Below are positions 9,448-38,830 of a stretch of 64,000 nucleotides of DNA, piece after piece; the first letter of the stretch is position 1, and each line of letters opens with the position of its first letter. The notes beneath the pieces were generated by a model that was not told the DNA's origin, made no database searches, and was given only the letters and a program-made list of their open reading frames with translations. The translations under genes were made by a program, and so were the position numbers. Source of the DNA: a virus; IMG/VR virus record IMGVR_UViG_3300006931_000001, positions 53,395-117,394 of that record, one strand, 5' to 3'.

Positions 9448-9451
9448 ATTC

Positions 9452-9700: not shown

Positions 9701-9707
9701 GCGTACA

Positions 9708-12721: not shown

Positions 12722-12735
12722 CTGGGAGAAATAGC

Positions 12736-14057: not shown

Positions 14058-14065
14058 GAGACATA

Positions 14066-14440: not shown

Positions 14441-14515
14441 GTACCGTGTCATCGGCGCACGCGTGTCTGTATGGTGCACGGTGTGCGTTGCTGCTCGTCG
14501 AGAAATTCCGCAGAC

Positions 14516-14547
14516 TTGACAGGCTTGGTGTGCTCGTGAGATACACT
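14516..14547 (+). promoter_or_regulatory. Candidate sigma-70 type promoter
   Basis: The 152-base gap before the UvsW-like helicase holds an exact TTGACA at 14516-14521. Possible -10 elements are GATACA at 14540 (18-base spacing) or TACACT at 14542 (20-base spacing). The gap separates tail genes from replication genes, a natural place for a new transcription start. The -10 match is weak. Confidence 0.4.
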
Positions 14548-14592
14548 ATCTCCGATGCGGTCTGCGCTTACAAGACACACTAGAGGTGCGCG

Positions 14593-16011: not shown

Positions 16012-16017
16012 GGAACG

Positions 16018-16560
16018 ATGCCAAAAAAGCAGCGTAGAAAGCTTGCAGCACAACTAGCAGCTCTGTTTCATGATCATCTAATTGAGCGTAGTTTACTAAC
16101 CCTGCATAGAGGACGTAAAATGCGAACTCAGTTAGATGATTTATCTAAAACAGAACGTCAAGCCTTCCTTAAAGCCGCGGCTATCGTTTATTTGGTTGGA
16201 GCAGATCCTCGTGAATTTATCGCAGCACAATTCCAAGCTTGGGAAGCTTATTCTCAGGCATTCGGAAAGTACATACTACCTCACCCAACTACTCTTTCTA
16301 CTCTTGGAGCTCAAGCACGATATGCGCAGTACAAAAAACAGCAAGAGGCTAGAGCAAATCGCAAGTCACCTGTAAAAGAGAAAAGTCTCAAAGAGCACTA
16401 CAGAGAAGAAAGAAAATTGGCTGGTCTGGTACGTATTATGCGCAAGCCGCCAGAGGACATACTCACACAGCGGCCAGAAGAATTCACACCGGACTTCCTG
16501 CGAGTTCGTGGAGTGTGGAAGGTAGTCAAAGAGCTCTATCAAGAGCGTACAGCTGTATGA
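16018..16560 (+). CDS. Basic protein between helicases, unknown
   Basis: A 180-residue basic, helical protein after a GAGGAAC site. It has a Lys/Arg-rich N-terminus (MPKKQRRKL) and a charged second half. No motif recognised. It is ATGA-coupled to the replicative helicase, which suggests a helicase-associated role such as a loader, but no sequence motif supports this. Confidence 0.55.
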   Translation: MPKKQRRKLAAQLAALFHDHLIERSLLTLHRGRKMRTQLDDLSKTERQAFLKAAAIVYLVGADPREFIAAQFQAWEAYSQAFGKYILPHPTTLSTLGAQARYAQYKKQQEARANRKSPVKEKSLKEHYREERKLAGLVRIMRKPPEDILTQRPEEFTPDFLRVRGVWKVVKELYQERTAV

Positions 16561-17870
16561 GTACCAAAAAGAAGCCAGGTGTATTCGATTATGGTATTTC
16601 ATTTCAAAGCAAGCTTGTACGTGTACTCTATGACGACGTAGATTTTACTACAACATGTGGTGTCCATCTCAAAACTGATGCATTTGAGAAACGAATACAT
16701 CGCTGGTTTGCTGACAAAATAATCGAGTACGCAAAGAAACATGGGCATGGTGTTAGTATCGACGCTCTGAGGATTGGACTCAAGCGTGATGCTAAAATAG
16801 GCAAATTTCCAAAAGATAATCTTGAAGCTGCACATGCGATGCTCGAAAAACTCGAGCGTCCACTTAAGGAACGCTCTTTTATAAAGGAAGAGCTCTTCAA
16901 ATTCATCAAACATCAGGCGATTCGTAGCGCAATTCTCAATGCTGCACAGGCCGGTGGTCATCTCGATCACGGTGATTACGATGCTATTGATGAGGATTTT
17001 GCTAGAGTCACTGAGATCCAAGAGTCACTCACAGGTGGCTTAGGTACTTTTTTTGTACGTGATGTCAAAGCACGTACAACGAAACGTAAAAAATACACCA
17101 AAGATGGTATCAGCACGGGGACCAAAGCTGATGACTATCTAAAGCCAGGTGGAGTACCTCGAAAGAATCTGGCTGTAATTGTAGCTCCTTCAGGCAAAGG
17201 CAAGAGTCACAATTTAGTTCACATTGGTAAAAGCGCAATTGTTGAGAGTAATGTCAAAGTTTTGCATGTTACATTGGAATTGTCTGAAGATGCTATTTTA
17301 GATAGGTACGATGCGACGTTCAGTGATATTCCTGCACAGCGTCTAGAAGAAAAGCCTATAGCTGTCAAGCGTGCAATCAAACAACTTGGTGAGCAGTATG
17401 GTGAATTCTTGGTAGTGAAAGAATTTCCATCTGCGACACTTACTGTCCCTGCATTGCGTGCATACATTCGCCAGTTGGAGCGTATCGCATTTTATCCAGA
17501 TGTCGTAATTGTAGATTACGCGGATGAAATGCTGCCATCGTGGACATCTAAAAATGATGATCCGTATGAGGCTATGGGCCGCATTTATCGCGAATTACGC
17601 AAAATGGCTCATGAGCTACAAGTTGTAGTCTGGACAGCAAGTCAAACCAACAAAACAGCACTTAACAAAGAATTTTTTGACTGGAATGATATTGCAGACT
17701 CATCCAAAAAAGTGATGATAGCTGATTATGTAGTGTGTTTCCTACAGACACTTGCAGAGAAAAAGAAAAAAGAAGCACGTTGGATGGTAGCAAAGAGCAG
17801 ACTCGGTCCTGATAAATTTGATATTAAATTGCGTGTTGATTGGTCGCGTTCACAAATAAGGAGTGTGTAA
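16557..17870 (+). CDS. DnaB-like replicative helicase / RecA-fold ATPase
   Basis: A 437-residue protein starting at the ATG overlapping the upstream TGA. Residues 1-170 are a helical N-terminal region. A RecA-type core follows: Walker A-like APSGKGKSH (about 211-219), Walker B VVIVDYADEM (about 318-327) and the sensor-like VVWTASQTNK (about 359-368). This order matches phage gp41/DnaB-family helicases, which unwind DNA at the fork 5' to 3'. The Walker A has an unusual GKGKS form. The primase gene lies 1.4 kb downstream, consistent with a primosome pair. Confidence 0.8.
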   Translation: MSTKKKPGVFDYGISFQSKLVRVLYDDVDFTTTCGVHLKTDAFEKRIHRWFADKIIEYAKKHGHGVSIDALRIGLKRDAKIGKFPKDNLEAAHAMLEKLERPLKERSFIKEELFKFIKHQAIRSAILNAAQAGGHLDHGDYDAIDEDFARVTEIQESLTGGLGTFFVRDVKARTTKRKKYTKDGISTGTKADDYLKPGGVPRKNLAVIVAPSGKGKSHNLVHIGKSAIVESNVKVLHVTLELSEDAILDRYDATFSDIPAQRLEEKPIAVKRAIKQLGEQYGEFLVVKEFPSATLTVPALRAYIRQLERIAFYPDVVIVDYADEMLPSWTSKNDDPYEAMGRIYRELRKMAHELQVVVWTASQTNKTALNKEFFDWNDIADSSKKVMIADYVVCFLQTLAEKKKKEARWMVAKSRLGPDKFDIKLRVDWSRSQIRSV

Positions 17871-17895: not shown

Positions 17896-17930
17896 AATTA
17901 ATAATTACTAACTTAGATTTGGAGATGACA

Positions 17931-18860: not shown

Positions 18861-19247
18861 ATGGCACTCAAAAGCGAGAATGGCTTACTTCGATGTCCGC
18901 GATGTGAAGCGGACATTTACTTTGGGCGTTGCTCTTCTCGCGAGTGTGGTTGGCAAGCGCCGTGGCGCTTAGAGCAAGAGGCAAGGCGTAAAGCTAAAGT
19001 CAAACGTGGCTACGGAACACCGACTAAGCTTGCGCCTAAAGTTGGAGAATTTCCAAAACCTAAGCGTGTTGTAAAAACTGAGAGTGGTAAAATTATACGA
19101 CAAGAGTACAATTGTCCTATATGTAAAGGAAAAGGCTGGTTACTGAATCCGTGTACTAGTTGTGAATTGTGCTTTGGCAAGGGTATTATAGGTTATATGT
19201 TATTAATGCAATGGTGGAGTGTCGTAAAAAAGGATCAAGAGTCATGA
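18861..19247 (+). CDS. Zinc-ribbon protein with DnaJ-like CxxC pairs
   Basis: A 128-residue basic protein with two cysteine clusters. The N-terminal one is CPRCEADIYFGRCSSREC (about residues 11-28). The second is CPICKGKGW ... CTSCELCFGKG (about 95-118), the repeating CxxCxGxG style of DnaJ zinc fingers. The basic linker between them may contact nucleic acid. Its stop overlaps the primase start, so it may be a primase partner. Exact function unknown. Confidence 0.6.
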   Translation: MALKSENGLLRCPRCEADIYFGRCSSRECGWQAPWRLEQEARRKAKVKRGYGTPTKLAPKVGEFPKPKRVVKTESGKIIRQEYNCPICKGKGWLLNPCTSCELCFGKGIIGYMLLMQWWSVVKKDQES

Positions 19248-20308
19248 ATCTCGGAGCTCGTATGCGAGCGCTTGTCAGATTGTTTGACATCAGAACATAT
19301 TTGAAAAAATATGATCCTGACGCAAAAGATCACGGCAAAGAAATGTCCGTGGATTGTCCATACTGTATCGAAGAAGACAAGCTAAAAAAGCTCTGGGTAT
19401 TGTGCGAAGATCGAAACGGAAAACGTGCTGGACACTGGATTTGTTATTACTGTCAATCAGGCGGCACTGATGTTGTCTCACTCATACGATATATTGAGGA
19501 TTGTTCTCTCTTTCAAGTTTTCGAAATTCTCACAGCTGATCGTGCAGATGCACAGCATGTTGATTTACGGATTCTGATTCAAGACACACTTTTTGGTGTA
19601 GATGGTTCAATCGAAGCACATTGGGATGAAACACCAATCAAGCCTATTCCATTACCTGACAGTTTCAAACGTATTAGAGATGTTAATCAATATCCGTATT
19701 TAGCACGACGTGGTATTTCTCAAGAGCGTGTTGATTTATATGGTTTAGGCGTGTGCACAGTTGGTGCAGGCAAGGAAGCCAAATACACAAATCGGCTAAT
19801 AGTACCTGTAATATTGCACGGTCAACAAATATTTTATATCGCACGATATATGAAAAAGATACCTCCTAAAGGAGTGAAAAAATCACTGTATCCTGTAGGA
19901 GCTAAATCTGGTCGTACATTATTTAATTACGACACAGCGAAACAGTTTGAACGTGTGTACCTGGTAGAGGATGTATTTTCCGCGATGGCTATAGGCAAAC
20001 GTGCGATGGCTACATTTGGAACATCTTTTAGTCAGTACCAAATGGATTTATTGTTACGTAGTGCAGCGCAAGAAGTAGTCATCATCTGGGATAGAGATGA
20101 TGGAGCAAAAGCTGGCCAGAGTGGCTATGAGAAAGCGCAAAAGGTGGCAGAGCGTCTATCCGAATTCTGGCGTGTGAGGAATGTACGGCTACCAGACGCA
20201 CGAGATCCAGATGAGATCAAACGCTCTGAACTCCGACGCTTGGTGAAGGCTACGTCTGTACTCGATGAAAGCTCGGCGTGGCGAGCTACTGTGCTTTCTC
20301 GTTTGTGA
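19244..20308 (+). CDS. DNA primase (CHC2 zinc finger and Toprim)
   Basis: A 354-residue primase. The start is the ATG overlapping the upstream TGA, preceded by AAAAGGA; a longer frame from 19169 lacks this context. Zinc-binding cysteines are C38, C41, C67 and C70 (CPYC ... CYYC). The Toprim domain has LVED near residue 241 (catalytic Glu) and the acidic WDRDDGAKAGQ near 281, with a GTSFSQYQM segment between them. The protein makes RNA primers for lagging-strand synthesis with the DnaB-like helicase upstream. It is about half the length of bacterial DnaG and lacks the C-terminal helicase-binding domain. Confidence 0.85.
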   Translation: MNLGARMRALVRLFDIRTYLKKYDPDAKDHGKEMSVDCPYCIEEDKLKKLWVLCEDRNGKRAGHWICYYCQSGGTDVVSLIRYIEDCSLFQVFEILTADRADAQHVDLRILIQDTLFGVDGSIEAHWDETPIKPIPLPDSFKRIRDVNQYPYLARRGISQERVDLYGLGVCTVGAGKEAKYTNRLIVPVILHGQQIFYIARYMKKIPPKGVKKSLYPVGAKSGRTLFNYDTAKQFERVYLVEDVFSAMAIGKRAMATFGTSFSQYQMDLLLRSAAQEVVIIWDRDDGAKAGQSGYEKAQKVAERLSEFWRVRNVRLPDARDPDEIKRSELRRLVKATSVLDESSAWRATVLSRL

Positions 20309-25631: not shown

Positions 25632-25808
25632 ATGTCGATTGTATGTGAGGTTTTGCAGGCTGTTGGATTGGGGTCCATTATAGGACACACATTCTATTGG
25701 CTTGGTGTATGGCGACGTCAGAGACAACATAAGAAGCTGTACCTGAAGCAGCGACAGAAAATGCTATCAGGTGATTACGAAGAAATCAGAATTGAGAAAA
25801 TTAAATGA
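25632..25808 (+). CDS. Small single-span membrane protein
   Basis: A 58-residue frame fits the gap between two genes and ends with ATGA overlap onto the AAA ATPase start. Residues about 8-27 form a hydrophobic helix (LQAVGLGSIIGHTFYWLGVW), followed by a basic coiled stretch (RRQRQHKKLYLKQRQK). The coupling suggests co-expression with the AAA/VWA module. No family recognised. Confidence 0.5.
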   Translation: MSIVCEVLQAVGLGSIIGHTFYWLGVWRRQRQHKKLYLKQRQKMLSGDYEEIRIEKIK

Positions 25809-26983
25809 AAAAAGATGCAAAGTATTGTAAGGTGACATGTCTCGAGTGTAATGAGTATGAGGATCATATTCTTGTGCCTCATATTCGCAAAAAGCATGAA
25901 ATGGATCCTGTGGTCTATCTGGAGAAACACGGAGGCTTGGATAAAGCGCCGCTTTGGTCCAGCTTTGGTTATTCTTACATAGCTAAATTACATTCTAACG
26001 CGAATGTTCCGATCGCCAGACCGAGGCGACGAATACAGGTGAGTAAACTCTTTCCAGATTTTGGAAAGCGCACCAATACGATACCCAGAGGCAAAGTTTC
26101 TGTATTCGATACACCAGGTCCGCTCACGCCAATATTCAATGAGCATTATATTTTTCCTGAAGAGCAAACTCTGGACCTGATTGTGCTCTTGGAAAAGCCT
26201 CAGCGTAATCGCGCGTGGATTCAAGGATGGAGCGGTACCGGCAAGACGGATCTTGTTCGGAATCTTGCGGCGCTGGTCGGTGCTGAGCTCTTGCTGTGGA
26301 ACCTCGATGCGTTTCAGCAGCGTAGCCATATTGTCGGCCACTGGACGGTAAAAGACGGCGCTACGGTGTGGCAAGATGGAGTGCTACCACGCGCCATGAA
26401 GCAAGGTTATTGGTGTTTGTGTAATGAGCTGGATACCAGCAATCCGGACGCCATGAATATCCTCAAGCCTGTGTTAGAGGATCCGCCGTATCTGATGATC
26501 GAAGAAACAGGTGAAATCATCAGTGAAGGTCATGGCTTGCATCCTGATTTTAGAATTATTGCTACAGCCAATACTTGGGGTCGCGGTGACACCACAGGAT
26601 TGTTCGTTAATACGAACACACAGAGCGATGCCGATTTGAGACGATGGAGTGGTAGACTTCTTTTGGATTACATGCCAAAAGAAGATGAACACAATATGCT
26701 CGAAAAATATTTCCCAGATAAACTCGACAAAGACGAAATAATCAAATTCGTGAGTGTCGCGAATAAAGTTCGCGATGCATTCAAAGCAGGTAAGATTGAC
26801 AAGACGTTTTCACCAGCTGAGTTGATTAATTGGTGTGAAAACTTTCTTGCCTTTGGTAAGACCGTGCATCATGCAGCACGTGTCAGTTTCCTACAATCAT
26901 GTACGCCAGATGTTGGATTGGCTATTGGTGAAATGATTAACGCAGTGTTTGGTGTGGAGAGTGGCACCGCGAAAGCGGAATAA
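25805..26983 (+). CDS. CobS/MoxR-like AAA ATPase with N-terminal zinc finger
   Basis: A 392-residue protein. Residues 9-35 hold a C-x-x-C ... H-x(3)-H set (CLEC ... HIRKKH) that looks like a zinc finger. The AAA core has Walker A GWSGTGKT (about 141-148), an Asn-Glu-Leu-Asp Walker B segment (CLCNELD, about 201-207), sensor 1 ATANTWG and an arginine-rich sensor region (LRRWSGRLLLDYMP). Such ATPases in the CobS/MoxR group work with VWA-domain partners to remodel protein complexes, as in cobalt chelatase. The CobT-like partner is encoded 500 bases downstream. In phages the substrate is unknown. Confidence 0.75.
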   Translation: MKKDAKYCKVTCLECNEYEDHILVPHIRKKHEMDPVVYLEKHGGLDKAPLWSSFGYSYIAKLHSNANVPIARPRRRIQVSKLFPDFGKRTNTIPRGKVSVFDTPGPLTPIFNEHYIFPEEQTLDLIVLLEKPQRNRAWIQGWSGTGKTDLVRNLAALVGAELLLWNLDAFQQRSHIVGHWTVKDGATVWQDGVLPRAMKQGYWCLCNELDTSNPDAMNILKPVLEDPPYLMIEETGEIISEGHGLHPDFRIIATANTWGRGDTTGLFVNTNTQSDADLRRWSGRLLLDYMPKEDEHNMLEKYFPDKLDKDEIIKFVSVANKVRDAFKAGKIDKTFSPAELINWCENFLAFGKTVHHAARVSFLQSCTPDVGLAIGEMINAVFGVESGTAKAE

Positions 26984-26984
26984 T

Positions 26985-27539
26985 ATGTACGCAGCATATT
27001 TGCTCTGCACAAAATTCTCTAAATACACTGGAATATTTTTAGGACAATTTGACTCGCCACCACAGGTAGTATTGAGCGTAGGAAAAATCGGACACATCCG
27101 TGAAACGCTCAAATATACTTCCACAAAAAGCGGTCCTTTTGCAGATGCAAAGCACGCTTTTAGGTACGCAAAGAAGATTGAAGCGTCACGCTTAGATATG
27201 GATGACTACTTCGTAGCCTGGTCATTGACATCATCGAACCAATGGCCAAGGCTCGATGTAGAATTTGAAGCGCCTAACGGACGACTGAGTAATGTATACG
27301 CAGGAGATGTACCCGCATGGTGGTATGATTTACTAACTTCTGCAGCTGGTAGTGCAGCACTACCAAAAACTGCCAAAGCTGTTCTAGCTGCGCGTAAGGA
27401 GCGCCATAGAGAGCTCAAAAGTAGATTCAAGACGCTGGCAAAAGAGACAGACGAATCAGTAGAGCCAGAAGAGAAAGAAGATAACAGTGAGCAAGTCATC
27501 AAAAGAAAACCGCGATTCAGGTATGTCCCACGGAAGTGA
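26985..27539 (+). CDS. Hypothetical protein between AAA and VWA genes
   Basis: A 184-residue protein starting two bases after the ATPase stop. It is alpha/beta in the first 100 residues (LLCTKFSKYTGIFLGQF) and ends with a charged low-complexity tail, including acidic ESVEPEEKEDNSEQV and basic RKPRFRYVPRK. No family recognised. Position between CobS-like and CobT-like genes suggests a role in the same complex. Confidence 0.55.
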   Translation: MYAAYLLCTKFSKYTGIFLGQFDSPPQVVLSVGKIGHIRETLKYTSTKSGPFADAKHAFRYAKKIEASRLDMDDYFVAWSLTSSNQWPRLDVEFEAPNGRLSNVYAGDVPAWWYDLLTSAAGSAALPKTAKAVLAARKERHRELKSRFKTLAKETDESVEPEEKEDNSEQVIKRKPRFRYVPRK

Positions 27540-29640
27540 GTTGTCTATCGCGATTGAAGACTACAAGAGTGGCCTTGAAAAATTCGTAGCCATGTTTGCG
27601 AATAACTATGGCTTGAAGCTCGTTTTTCGTGGCGCTAAGGCATACACGAACGGCAAGATCATTGTGGTTCCAGAGTTGAGCATGCTCGAGCGGCCACGCA
27701 TGAGTAAGCAAGACGTAAAAGACGCGCTTGATTTTCTCATGTGTACACGTGGCTTCGTGTATCATGAAGGAAGCCACATCATTTACAGTGAATTCGAAAC
27801 GGTCAAGGATCGGATCGATAAAGTTGGCGGCAAGAAATACCACCAACTGGCGAATGTGTTGGAGGATGATCGGATCGAGTATCTGGTATCTGGAGTGTAC
27901 CCAGGCGCCAAAGAAGTTTTGATCTTTACACGAGATTTTGTGTATGATCAGGCAATCAAAGCCTTTGATGACAAAGCTAATAAAATCTCGAAATATACAT
28001 ATTTGATGTATGCGATAGGACTGATCGGTGCACTGTCGTCAACGCGACATGCTCTGTGGTCGCATATACCAAAGGACATAAGAACACTAGCCGAGGAGTT
28101 GAGACCTCTCATCTTGAAGGCCACGCGAGCATCGGCATCAACATCTAAGATGCTCGATATTGCAGAAGAAATTTGGCGACGACTGATCAGTGAAGATGAA
28201 CAAAAGGAGACAGAAAAGGAGAATAAAAAAGACAGCAAGAAAAAGAAAAACAAGAAAAATAACAAAAAGAAAAACAAGAAAAATGAACGTAGCAAAGGAG
28301 ACAAAGATGATAGATCTGATGGACAAGATGATGATGGAGAAAATAGTGATGAATCTGGAAATGTTGGTGGAGATGATGACAGTGCTGATGAGAGTGGAGA
28401 CGACGAAAACGAAGATAATAGCGATGGAGCTACAAGACAGCGACATGGACAACGAGACGAAGACGAAGACAACGGAGGAGACGAGACTGGAGACAGCGAA
28501 GATAAAAGTGAGAGTGATGAAACGGGTGATAGCGAAACTGAAGACAACAATATTGGAAACGGAGACGGAAATGAAGAAACTCCAGGATGCGATAGTAGCC
28601 GAGGAAAAACTTCGGCGCTAACTGATGACGATGATGTCGATGATCTTATCAACACAGAAGGCGTACTCACGAAGAAAGCGATAGAAAATATCGCGCATCA
28701 GTCTACGGGTGTATATCGAGTATACACCACGGAATATGATCAAATTCAGCATCTGAATTTACCAGAAAATAAAGATGGCCGTGAATTTGTGGCACGTCTA
28801 GACTCAGAGACGCGAAGTCACTATGGACCTCTGGCTCGTAATTTTGAAAACCTACTCAAGGCGCGTTCGCGTCAACGCTATGTATATGGTTTGAGTGAAG
28901 GTGACCTAGACGAGGCTAGTTTGTATCGTCTGGCGCAAAGCAATTCGGTCAAGAGCGCCGCGTTGCAGAAACAAAGCAGAGCTGTTTTCAAGCAACGCAC
29001 AGAGGTGCGCTCTTTGGATGATACCGTGGTTGCCTTGACAGTAGACCGATCCGGTAGCATGTCCCACAGAGGTAGTGGAAGTAACAGCCGCAAGGATAGG
29101 CTGGCTATGCAGTGCACTGATATCCTAGGTCAAGCATTGCATGCGGTAGGAGTTCCGTTCGAGGTTACAACTTGGACCACGAATAGTGGAATACCTAGCG
29201 CTGACATCGACCGTACTATTTCTAATCTGTACACAAGATTCTGTGGCTTAGATTTTTTGATCCTCAAGTCTTTTGATGATGACTGGAAGCTTAAGAGATC
29301 TAATTTACAGTATCTAGCAGCACAGCGCTGCAATGTTGACGGAGAAAGTATTTGGATTGCAGCATCACGACTAATGCAGCGTCGTGAGAAACGTAAAGTC
29401 ATGTACGTCATAAGTGACGGCCAGCCAGCCGGAGAAAACTATGACGTGATCCTAGCATTATATAAGCATCTCAAGGATACTGTGATTCGCATCAGACAGG
29501 CTGGTGTAGAAATTCACGGTGTAGGAGTAGGAGCACCTGAAGTTGAACAATTCTATAGGCCACATTTCATCAATGTGATCTCAGCTTCAGAGCTCTCGAC
29601 CATGGTAATTACACATCTCAAGCAAATGTTGCATTTGTGA
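27487..29640 (+). CDS. CobT-like VWA protein with acidic spacer
   Basis: A 717-residue protein starting at GTG; an ATG at 27523 is a possible alternative start. The N-terminal domain (about 1-235) contains HEGSH (about 93-97) and NVLEDDRIEYLV, as in CobT-like proteins. Residues about 238-385 are a Lys-rich then strongly Asp/Glu/Ser/Gly-rich spacer. The C-terminal VWA domain has the MIDAS motif DRSGSM (about 520-525) and DGQPAG. CobT/VWA proteins bind the CobS-type ring through the VWA domain and carry the substrate. Here the pair probably remodels a phage or host complex; metal chelation is not supported because no large CobN is visible. Confidence 0.75.
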   Translation: MSKSSKENRDSGMSHGSELSIAIEDYKSGLEKFVAMFANNYGLKLVFRGAKAYTNGKIIVVPELSMLERPRMSKQDVKDALDFLMCTRGFVYHEGSHIIYSEFETVKDRIDKVGGKKYHQLANVLEDDRIEYLVSGVYPGAKEVLIFTRDFVYDQAIKAFDDKANKISKYTYLMYAIGLIGALSSTRHALWSHIPKDIRTLAEELRPLILKATRASASTSKMLDIAEEIWRRLISEDEQKETEKENKKDSKKKKNKKNNKKKNKKNERSKGDKDDRSDGQDDDGENSDESGNVGGDDDSADESGDDENEDNSDGATRQRHGQRDEDEDNGGDETGDSEDKSESDETGDSETEDNNIGNGDGNEETPGCDSSRGKTSALTDDDDVDDLINTEGVLTKKAIENIAHQSTGVYRVYTTEYDQIQHLNLPENKDGREFVARLDSETRSHYGPLARNFENLLKARSRQRYVYGLSEGDLDEASLYRLAQSNSVKSAALQKQSRAVFKQRTEVRSLDDTVVALTVDRSGSMSHRGSGSNSRKDRLAMQCTDILGQALHAVGVPFEVTTWTTNSGIPSADIDRTISNLYTRFCGLDFLILKSFDDDWKLKRSNLQYLAAQRCNVDGESIWIAASRLMQRREKRKVMYVISDGQPAGENYDVILALYKHLKDTVIRIRQAGVEIHGVGVGAPEVEQFYRPHFINVISASELSTMVITHLKQMLHL

Positions 29641-29650
29641 GGAGGTATTT

Positions 29651-30616
29651 GTGAGCAAGAAAACAACGAATCTGAAAAAGAAAGCCGTGCAGTATTACCA
29701 CGAGCACTATGCTCAATATAAACTTCCCGCAAATAAAGTCACTGCATTAAAAGACGTGATATTCGCTGCGCTCAGCAGCGATGGTGATGTAAAGAAGCTG
29801 GTTAATAAATGGGCAGCGCGCAAAGGTGTGACGCTGTCTTCGTCAGATGTGACACGCACGGAGCCTACGCTTCTCGATAAGAAGAGCCTGAAAGAAGTGC
29901 TCACGGTTTTGAACGACGCGAATGTACCAAACACGACATATGAAAAAAGTGAGAGCAAAGAAGAGCTGGCGCAGCGCGCAACAGCTGCACTTAGCAATTT
30001 GCCATCACCTAAGTTGATACAGAAGCTCGGATCAATTGACCCTGAAAAACTCAAAATGCTTCAAGGTGATGGAGCGTGTCTCGGTCTGTTTGTGGATCTG
30101 AAACAGCCCGAATGCCAGGTCTGTACAGATAAGACCGCTTGTGTGTCTGCTTATATAACTAACTTGAATGATAATTTGTCTTCATTCAAGGATGCGTTGA
30201 TAAATCTGAAGACAGATGTACATGCATCTGAAGTGTCTGGAGAAGACATGAAGAAAATCAAAGAGAAGAGCAAAGAGAAAAAAGTCAAACATGTCAGTAA
30301 GCGATTGGCATATAATGCTGAGACAGCCGTATATGTGATGGACATCGCAAATCCGCTGAAAGCTTCCAAGGAACCGGAAGCTCATGCGGTGATCGCTTCG
30401 GTCCTTAAGCGTGTACCGACGACGTTAGGAGAAATCCGTTCGCTACTTGAAAAGCAACACCAGTTGGTGTATGACTCTGACCGTGAATTTATGGAGGAGA
30501 TGATCGAACAGCTGCGTGACTACGGTGTAGTATTGCTATGGACTGACCTCACAAAAACTCAACGTCAACAGTATAAGAAAGATTATAGTTCGGATGATGA
30601 GGATGATGATGAATAG
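29651..30616 (+). CDS. Hypothetical protein after CobT-like gene
   Basis: A 321-residue protein with an ideal AGGAGG site six bases before its GTG. It is helix-rich and Lys/Glu rich with a possible Cys cluster (CLGLFVDLKQPECQVC and DKTAC, about residues 141-163). The C-terminus is acidic (SSDDEDDDE). No family recognised. Its place directly after the CobT-like gene suggests it belongs to that module. Confidence 0.55.
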   Translation: MSKKTTNLKKKAVQYYHEHYAQYKLPANKVTALKDVIFAALSSDGDVKKLVNKWAARKGVTLSSSDVTRTEPTLLDKKSLKEVLTVLNDANVPNTTYEKSESKEELAQRATAALSNLPSPKLIQKLGSIDPEKLKMLQGDGACLGLFVDLKQPECQVCTDKTACVSAYITNLNDNLSSFKDALINLKTDVHASEVSGEDMKKIKEKSKEKKVKHVSKRLAYNAETAVYVMDIANPLKASKEPEAHAVIASVLKRVPTTLGEIRSLLEKQHQLVYDSDREFMEEMIEQLRDYGVVLLWTDLTKTQRQQYKKDYSSDDEDDDE

Positions 30617-30695: not shown

Positions 30696-31163
30696 ATGGC
30701 CAAGGTTCAGATTTCACCAGAACTCGCTCAGATTCTTCTCGCTCTTGCCAAGGATGGACTCAGCAAGGAACAGCTCAAGCTCCTTAAGGCTGCAGCCAAG
30801 GCCAAGGCGTCGTCTGACGACGATGATGACGATGATGACGATGATGATGACGATGATGACGACGATGATGATGATGATGACGATGATGATGACGACGACG
30901 ATGACGATGATGATGACGATGATGATGATGACGACGATGATGACGACGATGATGACGATGATGATGATGATGACGACGATGATGATGACGATGATGATGA
31001 CGACGACGACGAACCGAAGGTGAAGGTTAAGAAGCGTGGACCAGGTCGTCCGCCTGGCAGCGGTAAGAAGGCCGCTGGCAAGCGTGGACCAGGTCGTCCG
31101 CCTGGTTCCGGAAAGAAGCGTGGACCTGGACGTCCGCCAGGCTCCAAGAACAAAAAGAAGTAG
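30696..31163 (+). CDS. Poly-aspartate protein with three AT-hooks
   Basis: A 155-residue protein after AAAGGAAA. Residues 1-40 are a helical Lys/Leu/Ala segment, residues 41-105 are 65 consecutive aspartates, and residues 106-150 contain three AT-hook motifs of RGPGRPPGS form (GRP cores at about 117, 133 and 145) with Lys linkers. AT-hooks bind the minor groove of AT-rich DNA. The Asp tract is coded by mixed GAC and GAT codons, so it is a maintained protein feature and not a simple triplet repeat. It could organise the phage nucleoid, act as a histone-mimic or DNA-mimic, or recruit basic proteins. I know no characterised protein of this architecture. Confidence 0.7.
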   Translation: MAKVQISPELAQILLALAKDGLSKEQLKLLKAAAKAKASSDDDDDDDDDDDDDDDDDDDDDDDDDDDDDDDDDDDDDDDDDDDDDDDDDDDDDDDDDDDDDDDDDEPKVKVKKRGPGRPPGSGKKAAGKRGPGRPPGSGKKRGPGRPPGSKNKKK

Positions 31164-31262: not shown

Positions 31263-31343
31263 GCGCGAATGGTGGAACGGTAGACACGGCAGACTTAAAA
31301 TCTGTTGCCTCACGGCGTACGAGTTCGAGTCTCGTTTCGCGCA
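31263..31343 (+). tRNA. tRNA-Leu (UAA)
   Basis: An 81-base gene folds as a class II tRNA. The acceptor arm pairs GCGCGAA with TTCGCGC and leaves discriminator A. The anticodon loop CTTAAAA gives anticodon TAA, reading TTA leucine codons. There is a long variable arm (TGCCTCACGGCGT) and a T-arm ACGAG-TTCGAGT-CTCGT. CCA is not encoded. TTA codons are common in this AT-leaning genome, which explains the phage-borne copy. Confidence 0.9.
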
Positions 31344-31350
31344 CGGTTTA

Positions 31351-31422
31351 GGATCTGTAGCTCAATGGTAGAGCGTGCGTCTCATAAACGCTTGGCCGCT
31401 GGTTCGATCCCAGCCAGATCCA
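31351..31422 (+). tRNA. tRNA with CAU anticodon (Met or Ile2)
   Basis: A 72-base gene with acceptor GGATCTG paired to CAGATCC, D-arm GCTC/GAGC, anticodon loop CTCATAA giving CAT, and T-arm GCTGG-TTCGATC-CCAGC. CCA is not encoded. CAU can be elongator Met or, when lysidine-modified, tRNA-Ile2 reading ATA. The two cannot be told apart from the anticodon alone. It begins seven bases after the Leu tRNA. Confidence 0.85.
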
Positions 31423-31442
31423 CGTAAATGTGAAAGGATATT

Positions 31443-31855: not shown

Positions 31856-34123
31856 ATGCGTGCTCCTGTAACATTCGTAGACACGCCTAAAAAAGCCCGC
31901 ACGGCGATGGATAGGTGGTACAGAGAAGCGCGAAAGTTGCCAACGGCATCAGATACTGAATTCGAGAGTGATGGCTCGATGACATTGATGTCGCTATCGT
32001 GGGATAGCTACAAGGTTAGAATCGTTGTAGAAGGCTACTTAGTGAAGGATTTTTTTGGTGAGCATCTAACCGATCCTAAAACTAAGTTAGTGTTTCAGAA
32101 TTATGATGCAGATGCACGTACGTTTCGATCAGAACGTATGAACCTCGATGCAGCTTTTCACGCTGATACGCTTGTGCTCGGATGGCTGCATGATGAAACA
32201 TTGAGGAACCATGGATTGAAGCCTCAATCCATGCATTTTCTTCACTGGCCTCGGAAAGAATACCAAAATTTATTTGCCTACGTTCCTGTAGGTAAACGCA
32301 AGCCTGTGATCTTGTCTCCTGCAGAATGTATGTACAAGTTGCCGCAAGAGGCTCTCGATGCAGGCGCAGATCAGGAAGTGCTTCGTGAGTTGATGATCAA
32401 CTACAACGGAGATGATAGCGCCAGCACAGTAGCGCTATACTGGAAGCATCGGCGGTACCTGACAGAGATCGGCTACTGGAAAAATTACCTGGAAATTGAT
32501 CGGCCGTTCACGTTGACGTTGATGCAGTGCCAGGATCGCGGCGTGCTGATTGACCTGACACGCATCGCGACCATCCGTCGTCTGGTCGGTCAGCGCATCA
32601 TGCGCAGCGTACACGCGTTCCGAGCGCTCTCAGGCAAGCCTGACATCAACCTGAACAGCGGTCCGCAGCTTCACAAGCTCCTGATCGAAGAGCTTGAATG
32701 GCCGATAAAAACCATGGTGGATCCTCGCACTGGAAAAACCGTACTGGATCCGATGGCCATGACCAAAGGTGGTAAGACCTCAAAGCCGCGGCCTAAGCTC
32801 GGTGCAGAATCTTTACATTGGTGGGCAGAAGAACATGGCTTTCCACTTGCACAAATTAAACTAAATTATAATCGCGAGGTCACCAAAGAACGTACCTTCC
32901 TGAAAGGTATCATTCATGGTGTAAGCGATGACGGCCGATTACGTTCACGATTTAATCAGATAGGTGCAGATACTGGCCGCATCAGTAGTCGCAAGCAAGA
33001 CAAGAAAATTGTCATTACCTTCACCAACCGTCGCGGTGAAGTAAAGCTCAAAGAAAAGAAGGTTAAGGTCGGTGCTAATCTTCAGAATATTCCATCGCGT
33101 AAGGAAAAAGACCCCGATGGTATTCGTGGTGCTTTTATCGCTCCAAGTGAGCATCGTATCACAGCACGTGGCTTTGTTGCTCGTGAGCTCTTTAACCTGG
33201 TAGTAGCTGACTACTCTGGTTTTGAGCTCTGCATGATGATCTACTGGACATATGCCATTAGAACGAAAAATAAGCGTATGCTCGGTATCATGCAGAAGTA
33301 CAAAAGTCCGTCTGCATGTCATGCGTTTACTGCTATTAACATGTACGCTCCATCTACATGTAGAGTAGAAACACCACAGGCAGAAAAAGCCGCTAAGTTA
33401 GGTTTCAAGCTCAAAGCTGGACGTTTAGAGAAACTTGGCGATATTCCAATGGACCATTGGAAATTAGCTAAAATTCTTTTTCCAGATCAATACACGCTAA
33501 GTAAGAACAATAATTTCAACCTGCTCTATGGTGGTAGCGCGCAGATGATGGCGCGCTTACGTGGTTTGAATTATCGTGACCGCAAAGTGTTGCGAGAGTG
33601 TGAGCAGCAAATGGAAGCGTGGAACGACACGTATCCAGAAGTCGTAGAATATCAACATTACATGGTACAGCATGGTTACGAACATGGTTGGGTACCTACG
33701 ATTTCTGGTCGTAGAGCTAATGTTCGTGACTTGCTGGAAGATGAGTCACAGAAAGGTCACGGTGAGCGTAAATGCATGAATACACCGTGCCAAGGCTCAG
33801 CGGCTGATATTGTCAAAGTAGCAATGAATCTCATCGAAAATGATGAGGAGTTAAATAGCTACACTACTAAGGCAAAAGTCGAGAGTCGTAAATCACGTCA
33901 ATTTCGTGATGCGCTCAAAAAAGCTGAGCTCGCGCTAGTGCCAGCTGTATCATTGTTGTTTCCTGTCCACGATGAAATCATCGTGGAAGCTCCTGTAAGG
34001 ATTATAGACCCCGTGACTCAACGTGTGGTCTATTGCATGAAACAGCCATTTAAGGAAAAATTACCGTTCGAGCTAGACGTCGAAGCCAAAGCTGCGTTTG
34101 ATTGGTTGTCTGCCAAAGGATAA
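31856..34123 (+). CDS. DNA polymerase, family A
   Basis: A 755-residue polymerase. The 3'-5' exonuclease domain begins with SDTEFES near residues 32-38 (D33 and E35 would bind metal). The polymerase has motif A VVADYSGFEL with D452 and E457, motif B SKNNNFNLLYGG (about 548-560) and motif C FPVHDEIIVE (about 702-711). A TGRISS element and LQNIPSR precede motif A as in Pol I-type enzymes. No 5'-3' nuclease domain is present, as in T7-like polymerases. The insertion around residues 500-545 is longer than usual. It is the replicative polymerase of this genome. Confidence 0.92.
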   Translation: MRAPVTFVDTPKKARTAMDRWYREARKLPTASDTEFESDGSMTLMSLSWDSYKVRIVVEGYLVKDFFGEHLTDPKTKLVFQNYDADARTFRSERMNLDAAFHADTLVLGWLHDETLRNHGLKPQSMHFLHWPRKEYQNLFAYVPVGKRKPVILSPAECMYKLPQEALDAGADQEVLRELMINYNGDDSASTVALYWKHRRYLTEIGYWKNYLEIDRPFTLTLMQCQDRGVLIDLTRIATIRRLVGQRIMRSVHAFRALSGKPDINLNSGPQLHKLLIEELEWPIKTMVDPRTGKTVLDPMAMTKGGKTSKPRPKLGAESLHWWAEEHGFPLAQIKLNYNREVTKERTFLKGIIHGVSDDGRLRSRFNQIGADTGRISSRKQDKKIVITFTNRRGEVKLKEKKVKVGANLQNIPSRKEKDPDGIRGAFIAPSEHRITARGFVARELFNLVVADYSGFELCMMIYWTYAIRTKNKRMLGIMQKYKSPSACHAFTAINMYAPSTCRVETPQAEKAAKLGFKLKAGRLEKLGDIPMDHWKLAKILFPDQYTLSKNNNFNLLYGGSAQMMARLRGLNYRDRKVLRECEQQMEAWNDTYPEVVEYQHYMVQHGYEHGWVPTISGRRANVRDLLEDESQKGHGERKCMNTPCQGSAADIVKVAMNLIENDEELNSYTTKAKVESRKSRQFRDALKKAELALVPAVSLLFPVHDEIIVEAPVRIIDPVTQRVVYCMKQPFKEKLPFELDVEAKAAFDWLSAKG

Positions 34124-34788: not shown

Positions 34789-37089
34789 ATGAAGATCACT
34801 GCATGCAAGCTTGGCAAATATTTTCTTGTTCATCAAACCATGTCTACCACTGAGGCATTGCCTTATTCAAATAAACGCGCTGTGAATCACGTTGTGGTAC
34901 TTGATTGTAGTGGGAGTATGACTTGTGATCTTCCAAAATTGCGAGAGAATCTCAAGGCTCGCTTGCCGCAACTCATCGGTGAAGATGATACGCTTTCTCT
35001 CGTGTGGTTCAGTGGACGTTCTGAATTTGGTGTTATTGTCGAAGCTTTGAAAGTCAGCACTCTGAAAGATTTGGCGTCTGTCAATAAGATTATTGACCGC
35101 TGGCTGCGACCGATCGGCATGACTGGATTTGTCGAGCCTATTGCAGAAGTTTCGAAATTGATCGAGCGTGTCAAAAAGAATAATACCAACGTATTTTCTT
35201 TGTTTTTCATGAGTGATGGTTGTGACAATCAATTTTCACAATCGCAAATTCTAAGCGAGTTGACCAAATTGGATGGTCAGTTAGCGAGCGCCACGTTTGT
35301 GGAATATGGCTACTATGCTGATCGTCAACTGCTGTCCAAAATGGCGGAAACGGTTGGCGGTACACATATCCATTCAGATAGTTTTGAATCATATGAACCT
35401 GTATTTACCAAGGCTCTGTCTCAGACAGGTCTTTCACCTGTCAAGCAAATTACTGTGGAATTACAAGCTCAACCTATTGGTGATTTTGTATTCTACATAC
35501 ATAATAATGAAGTAATCACACATAGTGCGAAAGAATCACGTGCCACGATTAACGATGGTACTCAAGACATATTTTATGTGTGTAGTGAGATCATGCATGC
35601 TGGCGTTGGTGTTAGTGATTCATCACTGTATGCAGCATTAGGTTTATATGCTGTACGCATGAAATCAGACGTAGTTATGGAAATTCTTCGATACACAGGA
35701 GATGTAAAATTCATTGATATGTTTGCCTCTTGTTTTGGCAAACAAAAATATAGTGAATTTGTCAAGGCAGTTTACGCTGCAGCATTTTCGCCTGATTGTC
35801 GATATACACAAGGTCAAGACTACAATCGTGTACCCGCAGATAATGCGACCACACTATTGGATGTTTTAGATATTTTGGTGAAGAGCGATGCTTATGTCTT
35901 GCTCGATCATCCTGCATTTCAGTATAATCGTATTTCACGTGGCACATTAAGTGCAGATGAGAATCTGTCAGCTGCAGAGCAAGACACTATCCGTGACATC
36001 CAAGCCAAGATGTCAACGGAAAAGAACGCAAAGAAACTGAAGGCATATCAGGCTCAAATTGACGATATTCTAAACACCAAAAAAGATGCCTTGGTATTTG
36101 AGCCAAAAGCAATGCCTGGCGGTTACAGCATTTCCAGCCTTACCTACAATGAAGAACGTCCCAATGTTTCTATTCTTGTGAGAAAGGCTGGTACTGTAAA
36201 TCTGTCATCTCGTGCTGATACTGCACCAACCGGCAGTCCTGCATTTATGAGTTTGATGAAATCAGAAGGTGCAGTAATTCACACCTTCATTTATCGTAAT
36301 TATGCCATCATCAAAGATGGTCTGGTCAACGTTGATAAATTGCCCGTGCGAGTAGATCAGACAACACAATTGATGCTTACGGCATCTGGCGTAAAGATGG
36401 AGCCACTGTTTTCAGAAAAAGCCGATGAGTGGTTACTGGATTTCAAAAATTTGCCAATTGTTAATCGCAAAATGGTCAAAGATGTATCTGCCGAGGAAAT
36501 GGCCAAACTGGAATTTAGTCTGATCAAGGCACAAGCTCGTGCCAAGGTGATAAAGCACATTAGGAACGAGCGTTATCCTGATGTGAAAATTGAAGGTTGG
36601 AAGAGTGTGTATGGTGACGAAGCCACACACTGGCTAGCAGAGCAAGGTCTGACAGAATACAAAGGATATTCGCCAAAGACAGTACAAGCACCGGCCAAGG
36701 ATGTGTACAGAGGCAAAGCTCTTGAAGTCAAGCTTGCCGGGTATTCTGCACTGCCACCTGTCGATAAAGTCAGAGAAATGCTTCGTGATAGTAAAGCACT
36801 CAACGGTCCAAGCACGTTGATGGCAGAAGCAATCAAAGATGTTGAAACTTGGCTGTTCAAAAATCCTGAAAAGCTTCACAAGAATTGGCTTACTGAATTG
36901 GAGAAAGTCGAAGTGTCCAACGTGCGTAGCCTACAATTTCAGGCTGCACTAATTCGTTTCAGCATTATTGTTGGTCAGACCTGGTTCCAAGAGTTTTCTT
37001 CGCTTGAAGAGAATACGTATTCTTGTGTATGCGATAAAACAAAAGTGAAAGCAACATTTGTGTTGAGTGAAGTAGATATTCCGATCTGA
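34789..37089 (+). CDS. Large VWA-domain protein
   Basis: A 766-residue protein. A VWA domain occupies about residues 30-215, with MIDAS motif DCSGSM (D39, S41, S43) and the later TGF and SDGCDN loops. About 550 residues without a recognised family follow. Repetitive low-complexity segments are absent. VWA proteins bind partners through the metal site, often together with AAA ATPases. This is the second VWA protein in the window, after the CobT-like one, and might share the CobS-like ATPase. It lies between the polymerase and SSB/RecA genes. Confidence 0.65.
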   Translation: MKITACKLGKYFLVHQTMSTTEALPYSNKRAVNHVVVLDCSGSMTCDLPKLRENLKARLPQLIGEDDTLSLVWFSGRSEFGVIVEALKVSTLKDLASVNKIIDRWLRPIGMTGFVEPIAEVSKLIERVKKNNTNVFSLFFMSDGCDNQFSQSQILSELTKLDGQLASATFVEYGYYADRQLLSKMAETVGGTHIHSDSFESYEPVFTKALSQTGLSPVKQITVELQAQPIGDFVFYIHNNEVITHSAKESRATINDGTQDIFYVCSEIMHAGVGVSDSSLYAALGLYAVRMKSDVVMEILRYTGDVKFIDMFASCFGKQKYSEFVKAVYAAAFSPDCRYTQGQDYNRVPADNATTLLDVLDILVKSDAYVLLDHPAFQYNRISRGTLSADENLSAAEQDTIRDIQAKMSTEKNAKKLKAYQAQIDDILNTKKDALVFEPKAMPGGYSISSLTYNEERPNVSILVRKAGTVNLSSRADTAPTGSPAFMSLMKSEGAVIHTFIYRNYAIIKDGLVNVDKLPVRVDQTTQLMLTASGVKMEPLFSEKADEWLLDFKNLPIVNRKMVKDVSAEEMAKLEFSLIKAQARAKVIKHIRNERYPDVKIEGWKSVYGDEATHWLAEQGLTEYKGYSPKTVQAPAKDVYRGKALEVKLAGYSALPPVDKVREMLRDSKALNGPSTLMAEAIKDVETWLFKNPEKLHKNWLTELEKVEVSNVRSLQFQAALIRFSIIVGQTWFQEFSSLEENTYSCVCDKTKVKATFVLSEVDIPI

Positions 37090-37311: not shown

Positions 37312-37791
37312 ATGAGTAAACGACGCAAGAAATTTTTTGCTACACGTGAGTGTGCAGCTATCATAGCGCGTCACCCTACCACAGGTAAGGAAATCATAGT
37401 TAATTACCAAAAAGACGCAATGATAGGACCAAATATCGATGAAGAATTAACACGATTTCCTGGTCTGTTAGCGTGGTGGTTGCAACTACGTGACATCGCC
37501 AAAGATGATCTAGACGATGCACGACACAGAGAACATAATATTGAGGAAGATCTCGGCATCAAAATCCGAGACATGACGGAAAAACGAGGTGAACGGCCGA
37601 CAGAAACTTTGATTAAGACTCGAGTTCGTGCACATCCTAAAATGCGCTCAGCCTTTCGTAAGCGCATGTTGGCTGAGCGCAGATGGCGACAGCTCAATTC
37701 AGCTGTCGAAGCAATGATTGAAAAAAAATGGGCGATGCGTTCTATGATAGAACATAAACGCATCGATTTTGTATCTAAAGACTCCTACTAG
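37312..37791 (+). CDS. Basic helical protein, unknown
   Basis: A 159-residue protein with charged helices, including about residues 64-100 and 105-140, and many Arg/Lys. The start ATG follows directly on the previous stop. No motif identifies it. Position before SSB suggests a replication-accessory role such as helicase loading, by analogy with T4 gene order only. Confidence 0.5.
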   Translation: MSKRRKKFFATRECAAIIARHPTTGKEIIVNYQKDAMIGPNIDEELTRFPGLLAWWLQLRDIAKDDLDDARHREHNIEEDLGIKIRDMTEKRGERPTETLIKTRVRAHPKMRSAFRKRMLAERRWRQLNSAVEAMIEKKWAMRSMIEHKRIDFVSKDSY

Positions 37792-37801
37792 GAAAAGACA
37801 C

Positions 37802-38830
37802 ATGAAGATAAACAAAGGCAGAAAAGTCAAACGTCATTCTGACAAGAGTGAAGATGACGATGATGACTTAGCAAACATGCGTGAGAAGTATCGGAAGTAT
37901 CAGGCACGTGAGGAGGGAGGTGGTGGAGATCGTGGTGATTTCGATGTCTTGAAAGAAGGCAGTAATAATCGACGATTTTTGCCTATTAAAGGCACAAGAG
38001 AATTCTATTTTGAAGCGCCTGTTCACTGGAGTGTTGGACCGACAGCTCAGAAGGTGCGATGTATTGGTGCTTTCAATGAGAAAGGCTATATTCTCCCTAC
38101 CACGAAATGTCCTGTTTGTCGACGGTTTTTGGTAGAGCAGCAGAAAGTTAATAAGAAGTATAAGAGAGGTACAGAGGAAGGTAAGAAAGCGTATTTCGAG
38201 GTCAAGAATGCTTACCATCCTAAAGTGCGTTATTTCAGTAACGTTCTGAATGAGGAAGGCGAAGTTAAGATCTTAGAGTACGGAGAACAGATTTTTGGTC
38301 AGTTGCTTAGTCACTGGTTCGAAGATGGCTCCAAGGTCGGTGATTTTACGGATATTCATGATGGCAGGTGGATGAATATCCGTAAGATTATCCCAAAAGG
38401 AAATACGAACAAGACTAACTATAAAGTCCAGCCTGATGATGAAACATCAGAAGTCGAAGATTGGAAAAAGATTCGTAAGCAGTTGCACGATCTCAACAAA
38501 GCAGCAGGTGAGCTGACAAAGCCAAAGGAGATCAAAGCCATGCTAGATGGTGATGACTTGGATGACGATGACAATGATGACGATGACAATGATGACGAAA
38601 GTGATGATACAAGCGAAGACGATGATGAGAGTGACGACGATGATGAGAGTGACGACGATGATGAGAGTGACGACGATGATAGCGATAGTGGTAGTAATGA
38701 TGATGACGACGATGATGAAGAAGACGACGATGATGAAGAAGACGACGATAATGATGATGATACTGATGATGACGATGAAGATGATGAGCCTGTGAAACGT
38801 AAGAAATCCAAAAAGCATCGTCGTCATTAA
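37802..38830 (+). CDS. ssb: Single-stranded DNA-binding protein, gp32-like
   Basis: A 342-residue protein. ATG 37802 follows AGGAAAAG. The central part (about residues 48-215) has features of phage gp32-type [13 protein letters not shown], a Cys pair CPVC (about 101-104), an aromatic-rich [13 protein letters not shown] and a binding segment around [13 protein letters not shown]. Residues about 255-330 are a very acidic Asp/Glu/Ser tail, the usual protein-interaction tail of SSB. Unusually, the final residues are basic ([11 protein letters not shown]). It would coat ssDNA and recruit RecA and polymerase; the next gene is RecA. Confidence 0.75.

What the first reader, a model, noticed from the sequence alone, without database searches (positions are those of the whole stretch)
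25632..30616. CobS/CobT-like AAA-VWA module of unknown target
An AAA ATPase with N-terminal zinc finger, a small protein, a CobT-like VWA protein (HEGSH, MIDAS DRSGSM) with a large Lys/acidic spacer, and another protein are adjacent, with a tiny membrane protein coupled upstream. CobS/CobT-type pairs normally work with a CobN chelatase, which is not visible. The phage module therefore likely remodels a different complex.
Basis: partly seen in the sequence, partly recalled or inferred. Interest (0 to 1): 0.6.

Follow-up and report, generated by a model that had tools for sequence, protein, structure and literature searches.

The report
Phage AAA/VWA pair beside replication genes
This phage carries a motor protein and a docking protein that look like two thirds of a vitamin-B12 enzyme, but their position among DNA-copying genes, their extra domains and the missing third part suggest that they remodel the phage's DNA-copying machinery instead.

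Summary
In detail: 25632-30616 encodes a tiny membrane protein, an AAA+ ATPase, a small protein, a CobT-like VWA protein and a further protein. Only the ATPase and the VWA protein have relatives; the pair is known in tailed viruses, where one paper proposes that it hijacks host CobN. No CobN is encoded here or in 8 related phages, and both proteins score far below NCBI's CobS/CobT cut-offs. E. coli phage-plasmids carry the pair, yet E. coli does not ring in the CobN search. Three facts that I did not find in print point away from cobalt: (1) the pair keeps one slot in the replication module (helicase, primase, pair, polymerase, SSB) although the polymerase family differs; (2) the VWA protein has a zincin-like HExxH (34 of 37 full-length viral relatives, 0 of 16 cellular CobT-like proteins); (3) the ATPase begins with a Ros-type zinc finger. 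Best reading: an AAA+/VWA remodeller of the replication machinery (0.5), target unknown. This copy lacks the Walker-B Asp and the sensor-2 Arg, so it may hydrolyse ATP poorly. Support for proximity to the polymerase is moderate.

The parts
25632..25808 (+). tiny membrane-like protein (58 aa), translationally coupled to the ATPase (ATGA overlap)
   Evidence: ORF and sequence; weak LapA_dom hit E 0.0079, below cut-off; not part of the conserved module
25805..26983 (+). AAA+ ATPase, CobS-like (MoxR type), 392 aa
   Evidence: AAA_5 1.2e-21, phrog_249 8.4e-50, PDB CobS 8.4e-37, model pLDDT 82.7 closest to CbbQ/NorQ
25838..25942 (+). Ros/MucR-like zinc finger of the ATPase (residues 12-46)
   Evidence: profile of 21 N-termini hits Ros 2jsp E 6.8e-5; PF05443 in 14 of 21 members, best 8e-5; in the window itself only E 0.011
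26225..26248 (+). Walker A GWSGTGKT (residues 141-148)
   Evidence: alignments A4, A1
26423..26428 (+). Walker B N207-E208: Asp replaced by Asn, catalytic Glu kept
   Evidence: D in 20 of 20 (A4) and 8 of 8 (A1) relatives; N also in 1 of 6 remoter relatives
26816..26818 (+). sensor-2 position: Ala338 in place of Arg
   Evidence: R in 20 of 20 (A4) and 8 of 8 (A1) relatives; not R in 1 of 6 remoter relatives
26985..27539 (+). small protein, 184 aa, no relatives found
   Evidence: 0 families in Pfam and PHROGs
27523..29640 (+). CobT-like VWA protein, 705 aa (alternative start 27487)
   Evidence: CobT_C 6e-23, phrog_1576 2.2e-81, PDB CobT 4.7e-25, model VWA part like NorD and Rea1-MIDAS
27763..27777 (+). 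HEGSH zincin-like motif (residues 81-85)
   Evidence: HExxH in 34 of 37 full-length IMG/VR relatives, 0 of 16 dereplicated cellular ones
27862..27879 (+). E114...E119 of the NxLEDxxIE helix, candidate third metal ligand
   Evidence: invariant in 32 of 32 aligned sequences, cellular ones included
28228..28710 (+). charged, disordered tether (residues 236-396)
   Evidence: pLDDT below 50; 52 D/E, 24 K/R of 161
29044..29061 (+). MIDAS DRSGSM (residues 508-513)
29651..30616 (+). 321-aa protein, no convincing relatives
   Evidence: best tblastn E 0.02 over 27%; phrog_13400 E 0.004
16515..17870 (+). DnaB-like helicase of the same replication module
   Evidence: phrog_19 1e-59; best blastp in SSU5/Rhizobium-type loci 2e-40
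19169..20308 (+). primase of the same module
   Evidence: phrog_47 1.6e-40; blastp in 11 loci
31856..34123 (+). family A DNA polymerase, 2.2 kb downstream of the VWA gene
   Evidence: DNA_pol_A 3e-43
37769..38830 (+). single-strand DNA-binding protein
   Evidence: phrog_1192 5.3e-20

Best explanation
The ATPase and the VWA protein form a two-part protein-remodelling machine of the viral CobS/CobT-like family. It serves the phage's DNA replication/recombination machinery and is not a cobaltochelatase. Proposed mechanism: (1) the ATPase assembles into a MoxR-type ring (inferred from NorQ, CbbQ and CobS); (2) its Ros-type zinc finger holds the ring near DNA (inferred); (3) the MIDAS of the VWA protein, on a long charged tether, grips a client protein, as NorD and the midasin MIDAS do (inferred from fold); (4) ATP turnover pulls on or re-seats the client, most likely a replisome protein such as the polymerase, helicase-primase or SSB (inferred from gene position); (5) the zincin-like N-domain cuts or only docks the client (unknown). 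Shown here: homology, the pairing, the slot in the replication module, the two extra domains at sequence level, and the absence of CobN. In this copy ATP hydrolysis may be weak (N207, A338).
For: Slot: in 37 of 43 IMG/VR loci with the ATPase, a PolIII-alpha gene starts 589-1915 bases after it; the other 6 loci end within 3.5 kb. The window has the same order, helicase-primase-pair-polymerase-phrog_1069-SSB, but with a family A polymerase. Elsewhere: next to primase/helicase/PolA (ICP2), sliding clamp and clamp loader, polymerase, and around ssb-bet in a genomic island with conjugation genes. Polymerase gap, worst member of each of 7 lineages: Fisher p 0.004. No CobN in 9 of 9 records. E. coli is a control genome that does not ring for CobN, yet 219 of 5,426 E. 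coli genomes carry the pair of PhiR41_1, all on plasmids. HExxH 34 of 37 viral, 0 of 16 cellular; the solved CobT has SMALR there. Ros finger. VWA part matches Rea1-MIDAS (Z 23.4, rmsd 2.6, 212 aligned) and NorD (Z 20.2, rmsd 7.4, 271 aligned); ATPase matches CbbQ/NorQ.
Against: If only the non-structural half of each genome is allowed, the polymerase-gap test weakens to p 0.075, and the test was designed after the pattern was seen. CRP-810 has the pair 9 kb from its primase-polymerase; Listeria LP-125 is 13.5 kb from PolA and no VWA partner was found; HHTV-2 shows no named replication gene nearby. Phage early genes cluster anyway, so position alone does not give a function. The Ros finger is missing in the S-CAM3, Mosig, CRP-810 and T5S1 proteins. 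HExxH is lost in nickie, BUCTxx99 and L047-L049. The window ATPase lacks two residues expected for normal hydrolysis. No client is identified, and no third gene is conserved across all lineages.
Confidence: 0.5

Rival explanations
1. Viral CobS and CobT borrow the host's CobN and raise cobalamin production, for example for a B12-dependent ribonucleotide reductase (the published proposal).
For: Proposed by Liu et al. 2021 (PMC8651126, passages); both proteins are true relatives of CobS and CobT; related phages often encode a ribonucleotide reductase (7 of 9 records).
Against: E. coli, the recorded host of PhiR41_1, does not ring for CobN; the window record and CRP-810 have no RNR large-subunit match; scores are far below the CobS/CobT equivalog cut-offs (126.6 vs 558.55; 107.9 vs 759.05); cellular CobT-like proteins have lost the HExxH that viruses keep.
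Confidence: 0.12
2. The pair is an activase or metal-insertion machine for a phage or host metalloenzyme other than CobN, like NorQD or CbbQO (for example ribonucleotide reductase).
For: Closest folds are NorQ, CbbQ and NorD.
Against: No metalloenzyme gene is consistently adjacent; RNR is farther from the polymerase than the pair in 6 of 7 records and absent in the window record.
Confidence: 0.13
3. The pair is a chaperone for virion assembly, as proposed for AAA/VWA proteins of Acidianus two-tailed virus.
For: The idea is cited for archaeal viruses in PMC7911831 (passages).
Against: The pair lies among early or replication genes, not structural genes, in the fully tabulated records ICP2 and CRP-810 and in the window; a genomic island with conjugation genes also has it.
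Confidence: 0.08
4. The VWA protein is a replication-stage metalloprotease (HExxH zincin) to which the ATPase feeds clients, so that client degradation is the function.
For: HExxH plus a downstream Glu-bearing helix conserved among remote viral members, including a cyanophage protein named 'peptidase'; HExxH lost in cellular CobT-like proteins.
Against: HExxH is lost in 3 of 37 IMG/VR relatives and in nickie and BUCTxx99 although the pair persists; no zincin fold was tested; E114/E119 are also invariant where HExxH is lost, so they may be structural.
Confidence: 0.17

Closest known systems
Viral cobST gene pair (phrog_249 with phrog_1576 / phrog_17276), as in SSU5, RHEph10, nickie, ICP2 and cyanophages
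   Same: Same two proteins next to each other, no CobN, tailed viruses, replication region
   Different: About 22-31% identity only; order ATPase-small-VWA; family A polymerase next door; Walker-B Asp and sensor-2 Arg both replaced
Aerobic cobaltochelatase CobN-CobS-CobT
   Same: ATPase and VWA domains homologous to CobS and CobT; N-domains of viral and cellular T proteins homologous, hhalign E 4.2e-7, probability 92.7
   Different: No CobN; below both equivalog cut-offs; Ros finger added; HExxH present where solved CobT has SMALR
Midasin (Rea1/MDN1)
   Same: AAA of the same broad kind; charged tether followed by a MIDAS, best structural match of the VWA part
   Different: Midasin has six AAA domains in one chain (recalled); here the ATPase and the MIDAS are separate proteins, with a zincin-like N-domain
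NorQ-NorD and CbbQ-CbbO
   Same: MoxR-type ATPase with a VWA adaptor; top Foldseek matches
   Different: Those act on respiratory or carbon-fixation enzymes (recalled); no such enzyme was seen nearby

Membership tests
Aerobic cobaltochelatase CobNST | CobN partner encoded with the pair | tested here: not met
   PF02514 absent at E<=1 in the own record and in 8 other phage records; control rings in 7 of 14 genomes. The record may be incomplete
Aerobic cobaltochelatase CobNST | CobS equivalog TIGR01650 above cut-off | tested here: not met
   126.6 bits against 558.55
Aerobic cobaltochelatase CobNST | CobT equivalog TIGR01651 above cut-off | tested here: not met
   107.9 bits against 759.05; the cellular Burkholderia protein L068 also falls below, 281
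Aerobic cobaltochelatase CobNST | Cobalt insertion activity | not testable with these tools
   needs protein
Viral CobS/CobT-like pair | ATPase in phrog_249 and VWA protein in phrog_1576, encoded together | tested here: met
   8.4e-50 and 2.2e-81; 504 bases apart by the ORF bounds used
Viral CobS/CobT-like pair | HExxH in the N-domain of the VWA protein | tested here: met
   HEGSH 81-85; 34 of 37 full-length IMG/VR relatives
Viral CobS/CobT-like pair | Canonical Walker B DE and sensor-2 Arg | tested here: not met
   N207 and A338; D and R in all 28 relatives of A4 and A1; of 6 remoter ones the island protein has NE and HHTV-2 lacks the Arg. Not defining for descent, but for normal ATP turnover
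MoxR-type AAA+ with VWA adaptor | AAA_5 ATPase plus MIDAS VWA partner | tested here: met
   AAA_5 77.6 bits, cut-off 22; CobT_C 82 bits, cut-off 21; MIDAS intact; Foldseek NorQ/CbbQ and NorD
MoxR-type AAA+ with VWA adaptor | Hexameric ring, VWA binding, ATPase activity | not testable with these tools
   needs protein
Ros/MucR zinc finger | Profile match and zinc ligands | tested here: met
   family profile to Ros 2jsp E 6.8e-5; PF05443 in 14 of 21 members; window alone E 0.011, below cut-off
Ros/MucR zinc finger | DNA binding | not testable with these tools
   needs protein
Zincin metallopeptidase | HExxH motif on a helix | tested here: met
   predicted helix 62-88 carries HEGSH
Zincin metallopeptidase | Third metal ligand and zincin fold | tested here: inconclusive
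   E114/E119 on helix 104-125, but also invariant in proteins without HExxH; N-domain not covered by the fold search
Midasin | Tandem AAA domains and MIDAS in one chain | tested here: not met
   one AAA domain; MIDAS on another protein

The most novel reading that the evidence does not exclude
The viral 'cobS/cobT' genes, counted as vitamin-B12 auxiliary genes, among them the cobS of the cyanophage core genome, are not metabolic genes. They encode an old AAA+/zincin-VWA machine that services viral replisomes, and cellular CobT is a derived side branch that lost the zinc site when it was recruited to cobalt insertion.
Probability: 0.25. Interest if true: 0.78.

Novelty: new variant of a known kind. 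Interest (0 to 1): 0.52.

Why it matters
cobS is reported as a cyanophage core gene and cobS/cobT are counted among auxiliary metabolic genes (PMC3037559, PMC7029224; passages), and viral cobST has been explained as a hijacker of host CobN (PMC8651126). If the pair instead remodels replication proteins, a widely counted 'metabolic' marker of marine viruses is misread, and a new class of replisome-servicing AAA+ machines becomes testable in an easy system: phage-plasmids of E. coli carry the pair next to PolIII-alpha, in a host that did not ring for CobN.

Tried and rejected
Near-DNA search of the region in phage records: no match. Searches for close relatives of the window ATPase and VWA protein in viral contigs and of the ATPase in genome contigs: none, so the window is an orphan lineage. 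The T5S1 VWA query gave no viral contig either.

B12-for-RNR idea: no RNR large subunit in the own record; rejected for this phage.

Anti-phage-defence idea: no PADLOC model at E<=0.01 for 6 proteins.

Five-gene module: the accessory proteins have no convincing relatives; rejected.

Promoters/terminators: counts no higher than in shuffles; uninformative.

Fold search with the VWA model: the VWA domain filled the list; the N-domain stays untested.

Tree of ATPases: the 10 cellular sequences form one group (support 100) on one branch among deep viral branches. The cellular sample is narrow, so no direction of transfer is claimed, and the window's place is not resolved.

Papers: passages only, by term search, from PMC8651126, PMC11288001, PMC11705849, PMC3037559, PMC9964418, PMC7029224, PMC4447125, PMC7911831, PMC9600943; the rest only as search listings. 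'Not found in print' rests on searches of the held open-access library; the pair CobT + HExxH gave 0 papers.
Full report
WHAT IS THERE. The window is bases 53395-117394 of a 117,394-base viral record. On the + strand, 25632-30616 holds five tightly packed genes: a 58-aa membrane-like protein, a 392-aa AAA+ ATPase, a 184-aa protein, a CobT-like VWA protein (705 aa from ATG 27523) and a 321-aa protein. The ATPase matches AAA_5 (1.2e-21) and phrog_249 (8.4e-50); the VWA protein matches CobT_C (6e-23) and phrog_1576 (2.2e-81). The other three have no convincing relatives.

HOW COMMON. tblastn of the ATPase finds 528 of 50,697 phage records at 1e-5, and of the VWA protein 32, all under 60% identity. 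In plasmids the VWA protein finds 946 of 72,556 records. The pair is known: Liu et al. [quoted passage not shown] Hardycor1 authors placed an AAA/vWA pair in the replication/accessory module and suggested a chaperone role (PMC7911831, passages). Authors of a Rhizobium-phage-like plasmid noted the missing CobN (PMC4447125, passages).

NOT A COBALTOCHELATASE, AS FAR AS SEQUENCE CAN TELL. CobN (PF02514) is absent from the own record and from 8 phage records searched whole, 0 of 9 at E<=1; the control rings in 7 of 14 genomes, and E. coli, which is among the 14 (it rings for other families), does not ring. Escherichia phage PhiR41_1, recorded host MG1655, carries the pair 181 bases before PolIII-alpha; 219 of 5,426 complete E. 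coli genomes hold that pair at 95-99% identity, all on plasmids and none on a chromosome. Only one E. coli genome was tested for CobN here; that E. coli does not make B12 de novo is recalled. Both window proteins fall far below NCBI's equivalog cut-offs: CobS 126.6 of 558.55 bits, CobT 107.9 of 759.05.

A SLOT IN THE REPLICATION MODULE. I fetched the surroundings of the pair in phage records chosen for diversity, not at random, and in two plasmids. It lies beside PolIII-alpha in SSU5, nickie, Rhizobium N1_10, BUCTxx99, PhiR41_1 and the Acinetobacter and Methylobacterium plasmids; beside primase, helicase and PolA in ICP2; beside polymerase and primase-helicase in T5S1; beside sliding clamp and clamp loader in Mosig, S-CAM3 and OC; near PolA in BS162P1; and around ssb and bet in a Salmonella genomic island with conjugation genes. 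CRP-810, LP-125 and HHTV-2 do not fit. In 43 IMG/VR loci with the ATPase (L041 and L054 are one contig), 42 have the VWA gene as well, and 37 have PolIII-alpha 589-1915 bases downstream; the other 6 end within 3.5 kb. The window keeps the same order: DnaB-like helicase 16515, primase 19169, pair, polymerase 31856, phrog_1069 37312, SSB 37769. Its helicase and primase match those of these same loci (best E 2e-40 and 3e-11), but its polymerase is family A and matches only that of BS162P1 in this set. The pair has thus stayed in place while the polymerase family differs. A placement test over 7 lineages, using the least favourable member of each, gives Fisher p 0.004; if only half of each genome is allowed it is 0.075; the pair is nearer the polymerase than RNR is in 6 of 7 records, Mosig being the exception. 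The test was made after the pattern was seen.

TWO EXTRA DOMAINS. (a) The N-domain of the viral VWA proteins carries HExxH followed by an N-x-L/V-E-D-x-x-I/x-E helix. HExxH is present in 34 of 37 full-length IMG/VR relatives and in 11 of 14 named records, the window included (lost in nickie and BUCTxx99; not found in the split HHTV-2 gene). Of 32 cellular CobT-like frames found in bacterial genomes, 16 remained after dereplication; 0 of 16 have HExxH. The solved cobaltochelatase CobT has GLGDSMALRQARHN at the aligned place; the direct phage alignment there is not significant (0.3 bits), but the cellular bridge aligns to it at 2.6e-7, and viral and cellular N-domains match by profile at E 4.2e-7, probability 92.7, over 193 columns. 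The cellular sample is narrow (mostly Burkholderia and relatives, few Alphaproteobacteria). So 'peptidase' for the cyanophage protein has a sequence basis, although activity is unproven. (b) The ATPase starts with a Ros/MucR-like finger: the profile of 21 N-termini finds Ros 2jsp best (6.8e-5), and 14 of 21 members match PF05443. The S-CAM3, Mosig, CRP-810 and T5S1 proteins lack it.

FOLD AND MECHANISM. The ATPase model (pLDDT 82.7) is closest to CbbQ and NorQ; midasin follows. The VWA model (pLDDT 67.9, residues 236-396 disordered) matches Rea1-MIDAS (Z 23.4, rmsd 2.6, 212 aligned) and NorD (Z 20.2, rmsd 7.4, 271 aligned) in its C-terminal part only. The architecture, ring ATPase plus MIDAS on a charged tether, is that of a client-remodelling machine. 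I infer that it acts on a replication protein held near DNA by the finger; the client is unknown.

ODDITY OF THIS COPY. Walker B reads NE (codon AAT) and the sensor-2 Arg is Ala (codon GCT). All 20 relatives in A4 and all 8 in A1 have D and R; the catalytic Glu208, sensor-1 Asn256 and Arg280 are kept. Of 6 remoter relatives aligned separately, the island protein also has NE but keeps the Arg, and HHTV-2 has DE but no Arg, so each loss occurs elsewhere, but both together were seen only here. An Arg-to-Ala change needs at least two base changes, so a single read error does not explain it. The motor may be slow or act as an ATP-binding switch.

VERDICT. A divergent member of a known viral family, with good grounds to move that family from B12 metabolism to DNA replication; the target and the role of the zincin-like domain are open.

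Noticed in passing
window 34789-37089: A second VWA protein (766 aa, phrog_2426, E 5e-171) lies downstream of the polymerase; 499 phage records hold relatives, many of them enterobacterial phages of about 150-160 kb, all under 60% identity, function unknown.
   Followed up: partly
window 30696-31163: A 155-aa protein made mostly of a long poly-aspartate run followed by AT-hook-like RGPGRPPGS repeats.
   Followed up: no
window 31263-31423: Two tRNA genes (Leu TAA, Met CAT) between the module and the polymerase.
   Followed up: no
window 17919-18854: A protein with collagen-like tail-fibre matches sits between helicase and primase.
   Followed up: no
L018 (AB571791) 9016-17009: In a Salmonella genomic island with conjugation genes, ATPase and VWA protein flank ssb and bet, 5.2 kb apart, so the pair is not confined to tailed viruses.
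   Followed up: partly
L067 4839-8059 and L068-L101: Chromosomal CobS/CobT-like pairs of Burkholderia and relatives; in B. arboris a neighbour looks like a sulfoacetaldehyde metabolism gene (recalled from its sequence, not searched). CobN nearby was not checked.
   Followed up: no
L047, L048, L049, L008, L012: VWA proteins that have lost HExxH although the pair and its slot persist: natural mutants for asking what the zincin-like domain does.
   Followed up: partly
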